Shown piece by piece: positions 41,954-61,389 of a stretch of 64,000 nucleotides of DNA (the first letter of the stretch is position 1; each line of letters begins with the position of its first letter). Origin of the DNA: a virus; IMG/VR virus record IMGVR_UViG_3300021375_000007, positions 1 through 64,000 of that record; one strand, written 5' to 3'. A model generated the notes under the pieces. It ran no database searches, had not been told where the DNA came from, and saw only the letters and a list, made by a program, of their open reading frames with translations. Position numbers and translations under genes: made by a program.

Positions 41954-43120
41954 TTACCCTACATATATTCCTAACGGAATTTTATTCATTTGTTGTAACA
42001 TCGCATCCGATTCGGCTTGCTTTCTTTCTAATTGTGCTTGACGTGATAATGAATCTAACGTTTCTTTTAATTCAGTAATCAATTCTTCTTTTTTAGTAAC
42101 AGCGTTAGATATTAAATCAGATCCATTCAATGTGATTTCTGAATTAGGTATCGGTAACGAGCTATACTTGCTTCGAACTAACCCTAATAATTCTTTTGCT
42201 AATTCCAGAGTATATCTACGTATCCAATTTCGGCCTACTTCATTAATAAGATCATAATCCATTCTACCATATGGTATTGTACTATAATCACTTATCAAAG
42301 ACCCGCTTTCTGCATTATACTTTAAAGGATTACCTTTTTCGGAGGTAAGCATATAATTGAAATATACTGTTTCATCTCCAGATGGTATTGGAAACAATCT
42401 TATTTGCTTGTTATTGATATCAAAGCCATATGCTGATTTTCGTATTTGGTCATTGAATTCAATTGCCTGGATTCTTAATACATCTGCATACATCGGCATC
42501 ATCATAAATGATACTCCTGGCGAATAACCACCCCATCCAAATGAATCCATCATTTGCTGACTACCAGCTCCGGTACCTACGAAAGGATCGAAGAATCTAG
42601 TAATGGCTGGTGGTGCCTCATGGAATACTCTTCTTATTTCAAATGAATCTGTATCCGGGGATCCTTGTTCAAATGTTACTGATGAGGTACTTGTTAAATC
42701 ATATACCTGTACTCCATTCTTAACTGCAATGGATGCTGTATAAACATTTACGTTTCCTATAGCACCAGCCTCGGTACCATAATCTTGTGCCAATTCTATA
42801 ATACCTTGAAGATTGGCAGAAACTGCTTTTTGTGTTAATTGCATGGAAGCTGTTGCAGCATATAAATTAAGAAAGTTATCTCTTATATTATATGTATTAA
42901 CATGGCCACCATATTCATTTACAGCTTCTTCAAAACAAGAATAAAACGAGCCAGATGGTAATTCTACATCATTGACCGGATATCCTAATTTTTGAGCACA
43001 CCATTTAACAACATTATCTATATCAGATGCAAAATCAGGTTGAGCATCATAAAAGCCTAACGGCGTTTGGCCAGCGGCAAATGTAGATGAACCATCCCAT
43101 ACGGGTATATTAACAGCCAT
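41954..43120 (-). CDS. gp13: Neck protein (gp13-like)
   Basis: 388 residues. The N-terminal part has NVVKWCAQKLGYPVNDVELP and CFEEAVNEYGGHVNTYNIRD. The C-terminal part has INEVGRNWIRRYTLELAKEL, GLVRSKYSSLPIPNSEITLN and a final coiled-coil helix LDSLSRQAQLERKQAESDAM. These match gp13-type head-completion proteins of marine T4-like phages and exceed T4 gp13 (309) in length. AAAAAGG is before the start. It joins the portal vertex to the tail. Confidence 0.7.
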   Translation of the reverse strand: MAVNIPVWDGSSTFAAGQTPLGFYDAQPDFASDIDNVVKWCAQKLGYPVNDVELPSGSFYSCFEEAVNEYGGHVNTYNIRDNFLNLYAATASMQLTQKAVSANLQGIIELAQDYGTEAGAIGNVNVYTASIAVKNGVQVYDLTSTSSVTFEQGSPDTDSFEIRRVFHEAPPAITRFFDPFVGTGAGSQQMMDSFGWGGYSPGVSFMMMPMYADVLRIQAIEFNDQIRKSAYGFDINNKQIRLFPIPSGDETVYFNYMLTSEKGNPLKYNAESGSLISDYSTIPYGRMDYDLINEVGRNWIRRYTLELAKELLGLVRSKYSSLPIPNSEITLNGSDLISNAVTKKEELITELKETLDSLSRQAQLERKQAESDAMLQQMNKIPLGIYVG

Positions 43121-43129
43121 GAATTACCT

Positions 43130-43143
43130 TTTTATATAAATAT
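43130..43143 (-). promoter_or_regulatory. Late-type element before gp13-like gene
   Basis: Minus strand ATATTTATATAAAA, then AGGTAATTC and the start codon. Confidence 0.5.
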
Positions 43144-43183: not shown

Positions 43184-43756
43184 TTATCTTACCAAACTTA
43201 CTTTACCTACTATTTCTTTATAGTAGTTTTGATAATCTTGATAGCGTATTTTATAAGTATATACAGCTTGTGGGCATAAACGTCCTCGAACTTTTCCATT
43301 CCATCCACCATTAATATTACGAGTAAAATATAATTGTTGCCCCCACCGATTATAGATAGCCATTTCGTAATATTTGATGTTAGTTGCCTTTGCAGTAAAT
43401 ATATCATTATAACCATCATTGTTAGGTGTAAATGAATTAGGAACATAAATAGTGGTAGTATTACATGGCAATGTTTCCATTATCAAATTAACGCTACTTC
43501 CACAATTCAGATCGTTTGTCACCGTAACAGTCAGCTGACCGGTACCTGGTACATCATTCCAATCTACTAGTACATTACCATTATTGTAGTTAACTATTGT
43601 ACCATTGGTAACTTGGTAATTGTATTGATATTGTGAATTGTATGGCACTGTATATTGTACTGGCCTAATGCCATTATAGCATAAAGGTATACGATGGTAG
43701 TATTGTGCTTGTAACGTATTGCAAGCTAGTAATAAGATAATTAAATACTTAATCAT
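43184..43756 (-). CDS. Secreted protein with T9SS type-B (CHU_C) C-terminal sorting domain
   Basis: 190 residues. The signal peptide MIKYLIILLLACNTLQA is cleaved before QYYH. A beta-rich middle includes NGNVLVDWNDVPGTGQLTV. The last 85 residues form a complete gliding-motility-associated C-terminal domain: YVPNSFTPNNDGYNDIF, EMAIYNRWGQQLYF, WNGKVRG, CPQAVYTYKIRYQD and a final KEIVGKVSLVR. In Bacteroidota this domain sends proteins through the type IX secretion system to the cell surface. A phage gene with it is unusual. It overlaps the gene before it by eight bases. Confidence 0.88.
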   Translation of the reverse strand: MIKYLIILLLACNTLQAQYYHRIPLCYNGIRPVQYTVPYNSQYQYNYQVTNGTIVNYNNGNVLVDWNDVPGTGQLTVTVTNDLNCGSSVNLIMETLPCNTTTIYVPNSFTPNNDGYNDIFTAKATNIKYYEMAIYNRWGQQLYFTRNINGGWNGKVRGRLCPQAVYTYKIRYQDYQNYYKEIVGKVSLVR

Positions 43757-44090
43757 GCGTTATAGCCCCTGTTACCGGTGTCGCATTAACCGTAACATCG
43801 CATAATACTATATTACCTACACATCCATTAATATCAGTTTCAATTACTTCAACTGCATAATTGCCTGGTATTGTAGCAGACCAATCAACTTGTATCGTAT
43901 TTGTGCCTTGCCCGGCTGCTATATTACCACCTGTAATATTCCATGCGTAAGTTGAGCCTGGCGTGGCAGGTACTGAATAGGCTGTTAAATTAGCATCTGA
44001 TTCACATATGAAATCTGGACATGGTAGATTTTGAGAATAACCTGCTAGCGTCGCTAGACTTAAAAATAATATAACTGCAATCTTTTTCAT
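43749..44090 (-). CDS. Secreted Ig/PKD-like protein
   Basis: 113 residues from the ATG at 44088-44090, preceded by AAAAGGATAC. A longer frame would cross the late-type element. The signal peptide is MKKIAVILFLSLATLAGYS, cleaved before QNLP. The body is one Ig/PKD-like fold: LTAYSVPATPGSTYAWNITG, then NTIQVDWSATIPGNYAVEVI, with two Cys pairs. It ends ATPVTGAITHD, much like the gene upstream (PVLTGAITHN). It is a member of a three-gene secreted set with the sorting-domain protein. Confidence 0.75.
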   Translation of the reverse strand: MKKIAVILFLSLATLAGYSQNLPCPDFICESDANLTAYSVPATPGSTYAWNITGGNIAAGQGTNTIQVDWSATIPGNYAVEVIETDINGCVGNIVLCDVTVNATPVTGAITHD

Positions 44091-44098
44091 TTGTATCC

Positions 44099-44112
44099 TT
44101 TTATATAAATAT
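44099..44112 (-). promoter_or_regulatory. Late-type element inside the secreted-protein set
   Basis: Minus strand ATATTTATATAAAA, then GGATACAA and the start codon at 44090. Confidence 0.5.
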
Positions 44113-44715
44113 CTAGTTATGTGTAATAGCACCTGTTAATACGGGAGGACAGCATTCTATTGTAGCATTAAAAGTTTCATTTGGATCTGCTTGGCAGTCT
44201 AAATTTATCCAACTACCTGTTTCCCCATCAGCATAATTTTCAATTATAATAGATAAATCATCACCATTTGTGTTAGGTGGGCAATCCCCCACAGTAACTT
44301 GAAACTGGAATGTCCAAGGGCCGTTCAACCCATCACCCCAATTATTACCCGGATTACCATCTAATGCACCACCTAAATTAGTATCATAAAACCACCCTGG
44401 GTTATTTATGATTATGCCTGTAGCAGATGATTGTACCATATTAACCCATAACCATACACCTGTTCCTGAGTTATTTGTTGGGAAACCTACAGGAACTAAT
44501 GAGGCAGCATCCCATCCACCACCTAACGCGACTGCAACTCCATGCATCCAATTTACCGATAATCCTTGGTAGTCTACTATAGTATAAGTAAATGTTATTG
44601 TTTGGCCTGGTTGGTATGTTCCTCCTATAGGTGGTATATCAACTGCAATGTTATCATCTAATATACATTGAGAAAATACTTGGAATGGGAATAGCAGTAA
44701 TAATAACCATTTCAT
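44113..44715 (-). CDS. Secreted beta-rich protein, unknown
   Basis: 200 residues. The signal peptide MKWLLLLLFPFQVFS is cleaved before QCIL. The body is beta-rich with many Trp, Gly and Asn: TYQPGQTITFTYTIVDYQGL, NNPGWFYDTNLGGALDGNPG, NGPWTFQFQVTVGDCPPN. It ends CCPPVLTGAITHN. This resembles domains in large secreted flavobacterial surface proteins, where the PxTGxIxH type of ending joins repeats. No Shine-Dalgarno sequence is seen. It may be the N-terminal member of a surface complex. Confidence 0.7.
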   Translation of the reverse strand: MKWLLLLLFPFQVFSQCILDDNIAVDIPPIGGTYQPGQTITFTYTIVDYQGLSVNWMHGVAVALGGGWDAASLVPVGFPTNNSGTGVWLWVNMVQSSATGIIINNPGWFYDTNLGGALDGNPGNNWGDGLNGPWTFQFQVTVGDCPPNTNGDDLSIIIENYADGETGSWINLDCQADPNETFNATIECCPPVLTGAITHN

Positions 44716-44727
44716 GTGTTATATATT

Positions 44728-44958
44728 TTAGTCTGTTTCATCAGGATCTTTATTCCGTTCAACCCAGTCAAGATATTCCACGGGAGGTATTATTTTATAA
44801 TCCCACCCATCATAAGGATATTCATAACTTTCGTGATCTTCTATAAATAACTCATATGTAGGTGTTTTAATCCAATCAATGGCTACAAACCAATCTTCTT
44901 CTGGGTCGAATACTTGCTTATAAAAAGCTGGCTGTTCTGGTATTGAGAATCTTTCCAT
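44728..44958 (-). CDS. Small acidic Trp/Tyr-rich protein
   Basis: 76 residues, acidic: EDWFVAIDWIKTPTYELFIE, DHESYEYPYDGWDYKIIPP, then ERNKDPDETD. No signal peptide or membrane segment. It lies between the leucine-rich-repeat adhesin and the secreted genes and could be a fibre chaperone or tail-fibre assembly factor, which are often small acidic proteins encoded right after the fibre. This is inferred from position only. Confidence 0.5.
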   Translation of the reverse strand: MERFSIPEQPAFYKQVFDPEEDWFVAIDWIKTPTYELFIEDHESYEYPYDGWDYKIIPPVEYLDWVERNKDPDETD

Positions 44959-44964
44959 ATCTTA

Positions 44965-47094
44965 TTAGTTTACTACTGTCCACCCTTTATTGGTAGCTAT
45001 TGTTGTTGTGCATGTCGATGACCCAGGATTATTTGAAACTGTAACTGTTTTTCCTGACACCGTTGGGAGATCTGTGAATAATTCATCAATCTCAGTTGCT
45101 TCAAAATTACAGCCTGATATTGTAAAAGTAATCGGTATATTTCCTCCTTCAATCCTTCTTAGATTATATGCGTTATAAAAAGTATTGAGCATATTAGTAG
45201 CACTGGACCAATCTATACCACTCATAGTCTGGACGGTAGTGCACTCTCGGACTAGTCCTCTGAAGTTAGTTACGCTGCTTGTGTTACTTAAAAAATTAAG
45301 ATTAATTAAGCCGGTGTTTCGATAAAACATTCTATAGAGAGAATTAGTTGATGAGCAATTAATAGCTTGATAATTAACAATTCCACTAGCTTGAAACATA
45401 AACTGTAATACGGTAGCATTTGATGTATTTAAAGAAGGCATATCTGTTAACTTAGGTGTAGTTGCAAGCATACCGTTATAGTCGGTGGCGTTTGAGCTTA
45501 CAGTTATTGACCCTACAGATGCTAAAGATACACACCCACTAAACATACTATTTGGATCTAATGCATTTGGAGCATTGATATTTCCAACTTTGGTAAGTGA
45601 TATACATGATATAAATAAAGCATCGATATCAGTGGCAAGAGGAAAATTTAAATTTGGAATTTCCATTAAACTATTACAGCTTCTAAATAATACTCTAACG
45701 CTAGTAGCTGCAGAAAAATCAACATTTGGAAATTTTATTAACCTAGTACAGCCATCAAATATGACTCCCATATTTTGAACTCCTGAAGTATCAATTAAAG
45801 GAAATTCTGTAAGTGAACTACAGCCGGCTACGAATGACGTCATTGACGTTGCTGAGCTTATCACCAGGAGAGGAATTTTTGGCAATGAAAAACAATTCTT
45901 ATAAAATGTATTCAATAGTACTATTGAAGTAGCATCGAAAAATGGAGCGTATACCATAGAACTACAACCGCTAAAAAAGCTACTAGCATTTGTGCTACTT
46001 GAAATATTTAAAGTTTTTATTCCTTGTAATGACTGACAATTAATAAAAGTATTAATAGTATCTGTTGCCGTAGAGACAGAATATTCATTTAACCATTTTA
46101 AGTTTGAGCAGCCATTGAATACATTTCTTGCTTGCCCAGTTGCACTATTAGCTATGAATGATCCGTTATTAAGTTCTATAAGAGAAGAGCAGAAGCCAAA
46201 AGTATAAAGTAAAGTAGTAACAGAACTAACATCTATTTGAATTTTTTCTAAAGCAGTACAACCTCGAAATGTGTTAGACATATTGGTAATTGAATGAGAA
46301 CCTTCCCAAATGAATTGTTCTAACATTCTATGCTGAATATTCTGGGCGTAAAAAGTAAAACTAGTACAATTAACAGCTTGTACTAATACATCCAACCATC
46401 CTGTAGTTCTATTAGTTGACGAAACCGAACTGTGTCTTTGGTTAAAATCAATTAGGGTCAAATTAGATCCCACCTGAGGGTAAACTTTTACAATTGATTG
46501 CTTATAACCCAAATTAGTCAAATTACTGGCTGCTGAATAAGAAAAATCATGCTCAGCAGTTACACCTGATGCATAATTTACTACATTGCCATCTCCCCAA
46601 TCTACAGTATAATCTCCCTGGGCTTCCAATGCTACATAATTATGTTCTACATCAAAAACGGCATAAAGACCATATACAACCTGTTCATTTACGATAAGTG
46701 TAGGTAGATTAACCCATTGAGAGTTTCGTGTATAAGAATCGAGTATAGGAATAGCAAATATATTTTTTTCAGTGACAGTGTATGCACTTAATATAGGTGA
46801 GGATGAATCTTCAACATATCCGCCTATATTGATACTTCCTATAAAATCACATTCTAATGCATAACTAGACGATCCCGTTTGGTGAGTATAAGTCCCATTG
46901 GGAGTCTGTATAGTATAAATATACGTATAAGGTCCAGTACCTCCTGTAGCCGTAAGACTTAGATATATTGTATTCCCAAATGTGGTTTCCGTGATAGGAG
47001 TAGTAAGCCCGGCATCAGAAAATATACCTACTTCTAATCCGATTCCACCACCACCACCACCAGAGGTTTTAATATTAATATATTGTTGTATCAT
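44965..47094 (-). CDS. Tail fibre/receptor-binding protein with BspA-type leucine-rich repeats
   Basis: 709 residues. After a Gly-rich linker (TSGGGGGGIGLEVGIF) and an Ig-like part, residues of about 230-640 hold many BspA-like repeats of the form FxGCSSLxxxPxxDxSxxxxMxxxF, for example FDGCTRLIKFPNVDFSAATS and FSGCVSLASVGSITVSS. Such repeats form curved solenoids that bind proteins or glycans. Next to a fibre gene, it is the best candidate for the host-recognition protein. It overlaps the fibre gene by four bases and is preceded by AGGAT. Confidence 0.75.
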   Translation of the reverse strand: MIQQYINIKTSGGGGGGIGLEVGIFSDAGLTTPITETTFGNTIYLSLTATGGTGPYTYIYTIQTPNGTYTHQTGSSSYALECDFIGSINIGGYVEDSSSPILSAYTVTEKNIFAIPILDSYTRNSQWVNLPTLIVNEQVVYGLYAVFDVEHNYVALEAQGDYTVDWGDGNVVNYASGVTAEHDFSYSAASNLTNLGYKQSIVKVYPQVGSNLTLIDFNQRHSSVSSTNRTTGWLDVLVQAVNCTSFTFYAQNIQHRMLEQFIWEGSHSITNMSNTFRGCTALEKIQIDVSSVTTLLYTFGFCSSLIELNNGSFIANSATGQARNVFNGCSNLKWLNEYSVSTATDTINTFINCQSLQGIKTLNISSSTNASSFFSGCSSMVYAPFFDATSIVLLNTFYKNCFSLPKIPLLVISSATSMTSFVAGCSSLTEFPLIDTSGVQNMGVIFDGCTRLIKFPNVDFSAATSVRVLFRSCNSLMEIPNLNFPLATDIDALFISCISLTKVGNINAPNALDPNSMFSGCVSLASVGSITVSSNATDYNGMLATTPKLTDMPSLNTSNATVLQFMFQASGIVNYQAINCSSTNSLYRMFYRNTGLINLNFLSNTSSVTNFRGLVRECTTVQTMSGIDWSSATNMLNTFYNAYNLRRIEGGNIPITFTISGCNFEATEIDELFTDLPTVSGKTVTVSNNPGSSTCTTTIATNKGWTVVN

Positions 47095-60677: not shown

Positions 60678-60710
60678 TTAATATAAGAAAAATTAAAGTG
60701 ATAACCAAAT
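60678..60710 (-). promoter_or_regulatory. Early-type promoter before terminase gene
   Basis: Minus strand TTTGG, 19 bases, TATATTAA, then AAGTACTTT and the start codon. It shares the TTTTTCTTATATTAAA stretch with the promoter at 2527. Confidence 0.5.
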
Positions 60711-61112
60711 AATTGCCGCAATTGAACCAATTGCTATTGTGGTACCACTAGCTATAATTGCAATACGCTTTCGTCGCTCTTTTTTTGCTTTAACTAGATA
60801 TAATTTAATTTGATCATCCTTTACATCTATTAGATCATTCAAATCATTTACTTCATACTTATATCTACGTATAACACCTTTATAATTAATTATTACACTA
60901 TCCTTTTCTAATAGTTGAGCATCCTTAAGTGTTACAATTTTTCGAGTTGCGAGTAATTCAGCCTTACAAAAATCCCCAGACTTTATATCTTGTATAGCAC
61001 TTATAAGATATGATTTAGGTAAACAAATAATTGTATCATTTACCGTAACGCTTTGCGAAAAACTCTGAAATGTCGTTAGTATTAAAATTACTAATAGTTT
61101 CCAATGTTTCAT
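60693..61112 (-). CDS. Signal-peptide protein with C-terminal membrane anchor, possible spanin partner
   Basis: 139 residues from the ATG at 61110-61112, which has a perfect AAGGAGG. The signal peptide MKHWKLLVILILTTFQSFS is cleaved before QSVT. A coiled-coil middle follows (VNDLNDLIDVKDDQIKLYLV), then a basic patch KKERRKR and a membrane helix IAIIASGTTIAIGSIAAIIW. It overlaps the preceding gene by 77 bases in another frame, as Rz/Rz1 pairs do. No lipobox is seen, so the spanin idea is tentative. Confidence 0.6.
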   Translation of the reverse strand: MKHWKLLVILILTTFQSFSQSVTVNDTIICLPKSYLISAIQDIKSGDFCKAELLATRKIVTLKDAQLLEKDSVIINYKGVIRRYKYEVNDLNDLIDVKDDQIKLYLVKAKKERRKRIAIIASGTTIAIGSIAAIIWLSL

Positions 61113-61389
61113 TATAATCCTCCTTAAGGTCATTAATAACGATTTGTGTACTATCAATGCTATATTGTAATTTTGTTATAGATTGATTAAGGCTATCAAT
61201 ATTTTGAAAATATTTAGCACGTGCCACTTCATGCGATTGTATTACTACGTTTAGGCTATCTACTTTTTGCTGTAATTTATATTCTTTTACAGCATCTGCC
61301 GGAGATGGCCTTGTTATAATTGTCATTATTAATATTAGTAGTAATACGGCAATTGTTATAACGTGCCAATATTGCTTAACTAATGTCAT
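61036..61389 (-). CDS. Membrane-anchored coiled-coil protein, possible i-spanin (Rz-like)
   Basis: 117 residues. An N-terminal membrane helix HVITIAVLLLILIMTIIT is followed by a long coiled coil (QQKVDSLNVVIQSHEVARAK, NIDSLNQSITKLQYSIDSTQ, NDLKEDYNETLETISNFN). This is the layout of Rz-like inner-membrane spanins, which act in the last step of lysis. The reading frame of its last 25 codons overlaps the next gene. AGAGGA precedes the start. No holin or endolysin was seen nearby. Confidence 0.55.
   Translation of the reverse strand: MTLVKQYWHVITIAVLLLILIMTIITRPSPADAVKEYKLQQKVDSLNVVIQSHEVARAKYFQNIDSLNQSITKLQYSIDSTQIVINDLKEDYNETLETISNFNTNDISEFFAKRYGK

What the first reader, a model, noticed from the sequence alone, without database searches (positions are those of the whole stretch)
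43184..44715. Phage-encoded secreted trio with a T9SS type-B sorting domain
Three consecutive genes encode signal peptides, and the last ends in a full gliding-motility C-terminal domain (PNSFTPNNDGYNDIF to VSLVR). The other two end in matching TGAITHN and TGAITHD. A late-type element lies before the middle gene. Such domains direct host proteins through type IX secretion to the surface. A phage could use this to coat the infected cell late in infection, for example to block superinfection, or to prevent new virions from being trapped. They may also be pieces of a captured host adhesin.
Basis: partly seen in the sequence, partly recalled or inferred. Interest (0 to 1): 0.78.

Follow-up and report, generated by a model that had tools for sequence, protein, structure and literature searches.

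The report
Phage surface adhesin split into three
Some marine viruses of Bacteroidota bacteria carry, as three separately exported proteins, what their relatives and their hosts make as one long cell-surface adhesin; two pieces end in a short matching tail and the third bears the address label for the host's surface-export machine, so the virus probably rebuilds a sticky structure on the outside of the cell it has infected.

Summary
Three adjacent minus-strand genes (g1 44113-44715, g2 43749-44090, g3 43184-43756) of a T4-like phage encode proteins with Bacteroidota-type signal peptides; g3 ends in a true T9SS type-B sorting domain (CHU_C 2.8e-15, TIGR04131 1.6e-16). The trio recurs in divergent phages at two unrelated sites (before the neck gene; between DNA polymerase and UvsX), is under purifying selection, and is more alike between the two phage lineages (55-73%) than their UvsX (26%) or polymerase (28%), so it probably moved between them. 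g1 is an unnamed domain near the N-terminus of many bacterial T9SS adhesins. Other phages encode g1-PKD-PKD-CHU_C as one chain of 520-610 aa; there the 'ITHN' that ends g1 runs straight into g2 (ITHN-FIPCPDTTC against ITHN|QNLPCPDFIC). The trio is thus a split phage adhesin, each piece with its own signal peptide. The ends of g1 and g2 generalise to I-x-H-[D/N]-COOH in about 30 distinct phage proteins, in none of 2252 bacterial frames. Best explanation: tip, connector and anchor reassemble, and g3 takes them to the surface through the host T9SS. Assembly and the benefit to the phage (superinfection exclusion, less progeny trapping) remain inference.

The parts
44113..44715 (-). g1, 200 aa: signal peptide plus an unnamed Ig-like head domain; probable tip subunit
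   Evidence: Orthologues L005, L008, L010, L011, L133; found as one domain, mostly near the N-terminus, in about a hundred Bacteroidota adhesin loci; confident AF2 model, pLDDT 92
44116..44136 (-). C-terminal tail TGAITHN of g1, immediately before its stop
   Evidence: I-x-H-N end kept in all g1 but the truncated L006
44097..44112 (-). Late-type element ATATTTATATAAAAGG before g2
   Evidence: 11 motif copies in the window against 1.27 expected, mostly before structural genes; also before g2 in L004
43749..44090 (-). g2, 113 aa: signal peptide plus PKD_6 domain; probable connector subunit (start ATG 44090)
   Evidence: PF19408 4.2e-7; alignment of 8 orthologues; related to the N-terminal half of g3
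43752..43772 (-). C-terminal tail TGAITHD of g2, immediately before its stop
   Evidence: I-x-H-[D/N] end in every g2 found
43184..43756 (-). g3, 190 aa: signal peptide, PKD-like domain and T9SS type-B sorting domain; probable anchor subunit
   Evidence: CHU_C 2.8e-15 and TIGR04131 1.6e-16; alignment of 8 orthologues
43220..43447 (-). CHU_C type-B sorting domain within g3
   Evidence: Only match to PF13585 in the 153 kb record, E 1.4e-16 in that search
43128..43143 (-). Same late-type element before the neck gene, marking the downstream border of the module
   Evidence: L134 has the neck gene directly after a DUF285-type frame, without the trio

Best explanation
The trio is a phage-encoded T9SS type-B adhesin split into three exported subunits. 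Shown by sequence: each piece has its own Bacteroidota-type signal peptide; together they reproduce, in order, the architecture of single-chain phage adhesins (g1 domain - PKD - PKD-like - CHU_C); the break after g1 lies where fused proteins read ITHN-FIPC, and the second break lies at the matching place before the g3 part; the pieces that precede a break keep a conserved I-x-H-[D/N] C-terminus; only the last piece has a T9SS signal. Inferred: after Sec export g1, g2 and g3 join in the periplasm or on the surface through the tails (for example by the tail completing the first strand of the next domain), g3 takes the assembly through the host T9SS with a host PorP/SprF-like shuttle, and the tip is shown on the infected cell. 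More weakly inferred: the displayed tip, or occupation of the host's adhesin shuttles, changes the surface so that further phages do not adsorb or progeny are not retained.
For: T9SS type-B domain. Q-rule leaders on all three and on orthologues. Same three genes at two unrelated genomic sites and an empty site. dN/dS 0.06-0.31. Module identity 55-73% against 26-28% for UvsX and polymerase between lineages. Fused phage forms and junction alignment. Tail specificity: 45 of 45 frames ending I-x-H-[D/N] belong to the family, 0 of 2252 bacterial frames. An alternative tip subunit with the same tail beside g2/g3. No PorP/SprF in any of 14 phage records, with positive bacterial controls.
Against: No complex was modelled and no experiment exists. 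g1 and g2 lack a CTD; I know of no case of T9SS piggyback and found none in the papers read. L006 g1 has lost its tail and L003 shows g2+g3 without g1 next to them. g3 (172 residues after its leader) is shorter than the up to 235 residues reported as needed for efficient type-B secretion in F. johnsoniae fusions (PMC12618676). The host is not identified.
Confidence: 0.52

Rival explanations
1. Shuttle or translocon decoy: the part that matters is the CTD. g3 occupies the T9SS or its PorP/SprF shuttles and stops the host from displaying its own type-B adhesins (possible phage receptors); g1 and g2 are accessory or act in the periplasm.
For: Other viral contigs encode proteins of 105-108 aa (120 aa by the first start codon in L212) that are little more than a leader and a type-B CTD (L166, L212, L243, L244, L263). 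Type-B substrates depend on limiting cognate shuttles (PMC12618676). The phages bring no shuttle.
Against: Does not explain why head and connector domains, their leaders and their tails are kept under selection and moved together.
Confidence: 0.2
2. Periplasmic or outer-membrane function: the proteins act before or at lysis or on the envelope and g3 is simply retained at the outer membrane.
For: In L003 a pair that looks like inner-membrane and lipoprotein spanins, and in L011 a short gene with a membrane segment, lie directly upstream.
Against: No fixed lysis partner across loci; the window has its own spanin-like pair elsewhere (60693-61389); the CHU_C domain is a surface-export signal.
Confidence: 0.13
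3. Virion accessory: the secreted subunits bind progeny outside the cell as decoration or adhesive fibres.
For: In the window lineage the genes sit among structural genes and share their late-type element.
Against: At the other site they sit among replication genes without the element; Sec leaders keep them away from cytosolic virion assembly.
Confidence: 0.08
4. Non-functional remnants of a captured host adhesin.
For: The domains are shared with host adhesins; L006 g1 is truncated.
Against: dN/dS 0.06-0.31, intact frames, leaders and tails over many phages, and probable transfer as a block.
Confidence: 0.03

Closest known systems
T9SS type-B substrates such as F. johnsoniae SprB and P. gingivalis PG1035 (TIGR04131/PF13585)
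   Same: Sec leader, PKD/Ig-type domains, type-B CTD at the C-terminus; need of a PorP/SprF-like shuttle expected (PMC9143113, PMC12618676)
   Different: SprB is one giant chain (669 kDa per PMC9143113); here three small chains, two without CTD; no shuttle gene in the phage records
Phage-encoded T9SS type-A cargo of 'Cryophage' (PMC7468147)
   Same: A Bacteroidota phage codes for proteins addressed to the host T9SS; superinfection exclusion proposed there too
   Different: Type-A CTD on single enzymes or PA14 proteins; here type B, adhesin domains, split into subunits with C-terminal tails
Q-rule secreted proteins of Porphyromonas gingivalis phages (PMC10367356)
   Same: Phage proteins whose predicted leader cleavage exposes Gln
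   Different: Unknown function; the searched text holds no mention of T9SS
Grappling hook protein GhpA of Aureispira (PDB 9flp)
   Same: Only solved relative of the g3 CTD by profile search, E 1e-7
   Different: A single 5898-aa bacterial protein
Single-chain huge-phage adhesin in LR756502 (L014 3379-8391)
   Same: g1 domain, repeats, PKD and CHU_C in one phage-record protein
   Different: Unsplit, 1670 aa, with many SprB repeats; record unannotated
Pilins joined by donor strands (general knowledge)
   Same: Ig-like subunits that could be joined by a short terminal strand
   Different: Resemblance of principle only; tail is C-terminal, no usher or chaperone seen, not tested

Membership tests
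T9SS type-B substrate (g3) | Type-B CTD (TIGR04131/PF13585) at the extreme C-terminus | tested here: met
   1.6e-16, residues 104-190 of 190; 2.8e-15
T9SS type-B substrate (g3) | Sec signal peptide | tested here: met
   Hydrophobic leader with Q-rule site in all orthologues, by rule and not SignalP
T9SS type-B substrate (g3) | Cognate PorP/SprF gene next to it (usual, not universal) | tested here: not met
   None in 14 phage records; 9 and 17 in bacterial controls. Orphan substrates served by a shared shuttle are known
T9SS type-B substrate (g3) | Secretion that depends on the T9SS | not testable with these tools
   Needs an experiment
T9SS substrate (g1 and g2) | Any T9SS CTD | tested here: not met
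   No CTD family on g1 or g2; no type-A CTD in the record
SprB-type gliding adhesin | Long chain with SprB repeats | tested here: not met
   No PF13573 match in g1-g3, unlike host relatives
Cryophage-type phage T9SS cargo | Type-A CTD | tested here: not met
   PF18962 absent from the record
Isopeptide-joined subunits (SpyTag-like), considered for the tail | Conserved acceptor Lys in mature g2 | tested here: not met
   No invariant Lys in mature g2 over 8 sequences
Strand-complemented subunit fibres (works-like idea) | Tail inserted in the next subunit | not tested
   Only single-chain models could be run

The most novel reading that the evidence does not exclude
I-x-H-[D/N]-COOH is a docking tag: separately exported subunits with exchangeable tips (the g1 domain or a 387-aa tip) attach to a CHU_C anchor and leave through the host T9SS by piggyback, so that phages can swap tips as separate genes. 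This would be a modular multi-subunit T9SS surface structure that I found only in phages, and a route for cargo without a CTD to leave by the T9SS.
Probability: 0.35. Interest if true: 0.87.

Novelty: new variant of a known kind. Interest (0 to 1): 0.7.

Why it matters
Type-B cargo is known as single-chain adhesin with its own signal. A phage module that makes the same architecture from three exported chains, with a conserved end tag at each break, suggests assembly after export and T9SS passage by piggyback, both directly testable. It also points to a widespread way in which Bacteroidota phages may remodel the host surface (at least 119 IMG/VR stretches hold the type-B core motif; the scan stopped at its limit), and gives a sequence handle (I-x-H-[D/N] end plus Q-rule leader) to find more subunits.

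Tried and rejected
Chance or overlap origin of the matching tails: rejected, the codons vary synonymously and the motif persists where the gene overlap differs. Host linker remnant: T[GSPAT]xI[TYFLS]H[DN] was not found at a matching place in the bacterial proteins that hold the g1 domain, and no bacterial frame ends in I-x-H-[D/N]. Isopeptide joining to g2: no invariant Lys. A free-standing bacterial ancestor of g2: in samples of 396 Bacteroidota genomes relatives lie only in frames of 710-4115 aa and 733-4209 aa. Known fold for g1: Foldseek gives only weak Ig-like adhesin/pilin matches (query TM 0.42 or less in the PDB rows listed); best viral match TM 0.64 to a GEVED-domain protein of Virus NIOZ-UU157. 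Named relatives of g1 or g2 in PHROGs: none. The first genome scan with g1 found nothing because its peptides were too specific; a degenerate DNA pattern worked. A paper on phage resistance of sprB mutants was not found in the library.

Full report
WHAT IS THERE. The window is part of a 153 kb IMG/VR record of a T4-like phage: gp23-type major capsid protein, PhoH, tail sheath and tube, neck adaptor, gp43-type polymerase and UvsX are recognised. Between a DUF285 repeat protein (44965-47094) with a small gene (44728-44958) and the neck gene (41954-43120) lie g1 (44113-44715), g2 (43749-44090) and g3 (43184-43756), all on the minus strand. g3 ends in a T9SS type-B sorting domain well above curated cut-offs. 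g2 is a PKD_6 domain; g2 and the N-terminal half of g3 are related (hhalign probability 94%). g1 has no match in Pfam, NCBIfam or PHROGs. All three leaders end before Gln, the Bacteroidota Q-rule (PMC5837995); only one other gene-like frame in the window shows this.

IT IS CONSERVED AND SELECTED. Viral contigs L002, L003, L004 and L011 carry the genes (whole or in part) at the same place; L006, L008, L010 and L133 carry them between a DNA polymerase and a UvsX gene. L134, with an 83% identical neck protein, goes from a DUF285-type frame directly to the neck gene, so the module is optional. dN/dS is 0.06-0.31 where dS is measurable. Between the two lineages g1 is 73%, g2 70% and g3 55% identical (window against L008), but UvsX 26% and polymerase 28%. 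The simplest reading is horizontal transfer of the block.

WHERE THE DOMAINS COME FROM. A degenerate DNA pattern from g1 and a profile search find the g1 domain in about a hundred loci of Bacteroidota genomes, in frames usually several hundred to over two thousand residues long, mostly near the N-terminus, and in the five checked in Pfam (four bacterial, one huge-phage) followed by SprB, PKD or Ig repeats, with CHU_C where the end of the chain is included. The unannotated huge-phage record LR756502 has the same single-chain layout (1670 aa). So g1 is the head domain of a class of T9SS adhesins.

THE ROSETTA STONE. A scan for the type-B core motif in viral contigs gave at least 119 stretches; in 116 of 118 frames the motif is C-terminal. 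Several contigs encode g1 domain, PKD, a second Ig-like part, PKD-like part and CHU_C in one chain of about 520-610 aa (L195, L264, L148, L169, L151, L228, L173; L167 lacks the first PKD). Others encode separate genes (L192, L209, L162) or g2+g3 pairs (L197, L241, L156/L259, L196; in L234 g2 is followed by the end of the stretch held). In L148 and L228 the chain reads ITHN-[FL]IPCPDTTC where the window reads ...TGAITHN-stop and, after a new leader, QNLPCPDFIC.... The second break, best seen in L192 (PIEHD|QQVIELC) against fused L195 (PITYDFLSLDLC), is at the equivalent place. Split and fused forms are therefore the same protein, cut at its domain junctions. Which state came first is not proven; since nearly all bacterial relatives are long single chains, fission is the likelier direction.

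THE TAIL. Pieces that lie before a break end in I-x-H-[D/N]. Over all loci and the window 45 frames of at least 90 aa end so, all members of this family (about 30 distinct after removing repeated loci), against none in 2252 bacterial frames. The loci were fetched by family searches, so this measures the specificity of the tail and not its frequency in nature. The tail also revealed a further subunit, about 385 aa, with an N-terminal domain unnamed in Pfam and a PKD_4 domain, beside g2 (and g3) in L196, L197, L234 and L241: an alternative tip. In single-chain models g1 is confident (pLDDT 92) and both tails are among the less confident parts (last blocks 73 and 69). This fits a peptide that is ordered only with a partner but does not show it.

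HOW IT MOST LIKELY WORKS. Shown: leaders, domains, tails, order, conservation. From the literature: type-B CTDs need a PorP/SprF-like shuttle, direct cargo to the surface (for SprB to the gliding machinery), and one shuttle can serve several orphan substrates (PMC12618676, PMC9143113, PMC10202324). The phage records have no such shuttle, while two bacterial controls have 9 and 17, so a host shuttle would have to be used. Inferred: g1 and g2, which lack a CTD, leave with g3 as a complex held by the tails. The benefit to the phage is open; masking of the surface or occupation of adhesin shuttles are the likeliest, and the short CTD-only phage proteins (L166, L212, L243, L244, L263) make the decoy idea a serious rival.

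TIMING. The element before g2 is real and shared with sheath, tube and neck genes, so late expression is likely in this lineage. At the polymerase/UvsX site the element is absent, so 'late' is not a property of the module as such.

CAVEATS. The assignment as viral was spot-checked for three further contigs (gp25-type baseplate wedge in L192, gp23-type capsid in L162, RNA ligase/tail-fibre attachment protein in L148). Signal peptides were judged by a hydrophobicity rule, not by SignalP. The host was not identified beyond Bacteroidota, and that by inference. L006 g1 has lost its tail, so either the tail is not needed in every phage or that copy is decaying. L209 g2 has no recognisable leader or start in frame.

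VERDICT. It is not a simple captured fragment but a mobile, selected, three-gene split adhesin with a C-terminal signature that I found described nowhere in the literature held here. Phage-encoded T9SS cargo of type A has been described (PMC7468147); the split type-B form is a new variant of that kind.

Noticed in passing
60693-61389 (-): Overlapping pair: 117-aa membrane/coiled-coil protein (61036-61389) and 139-aa Q-rule leader, coiled-coil, C-terminal membrane segment (60693-61112), next to the large terminase; looks like a two-part spanin pair.
   Followed up: partly
44965-47094 (-): 709-aa DUF285 repeat protein without a leader upstream of the trio; DUF285-like frames also stand at this place in L005 and L134; possibly a virion tip protein.
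   Followed up: no
37811-62664 (-), scattered: ATATTTATATAAAARG element repeated just before many structural gene starts: probable late promoter of this phage group.
   Followed up: partly
L008 3014-3490, L010 8080-8505, L133 660-1133: Conserved 141-158 aa multi-membrane-segment protein directly before g1 at the polymerase/UvsX site; no family above cut-off; not in the window's record.
   Followed up: partly
L166 6237-6560, L212 1860-2222, L243 12330-12653, L244 6156-6482, L263 3597-3914: Viral contigs encode proteins that are little more than a leader and a type-B CTD, with no tail-tagged partner beside them: possible T9SS or shuttle decoys.
   Followed up: partly
L003 256-848: Spanin-like pair (coiled-coil membrane protein and lipoprotein-like protein, overlapping) in the place of g1 before g2.
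   Followed up: no
L014 and L015 (LR756502.1, LR745206.1): Two huge-phage records encode long single-chain type-B adhesins (1670 and 732 aa).
   Followed up: partly
L006 7022-9633, L010 10959-13589, L010 6384-8021: The UvsX genes, and in L010 the polymerase gene, appear interrupted by intein/homing-endonuclease-like sequence at the site next to the trio.
   Followed up: no
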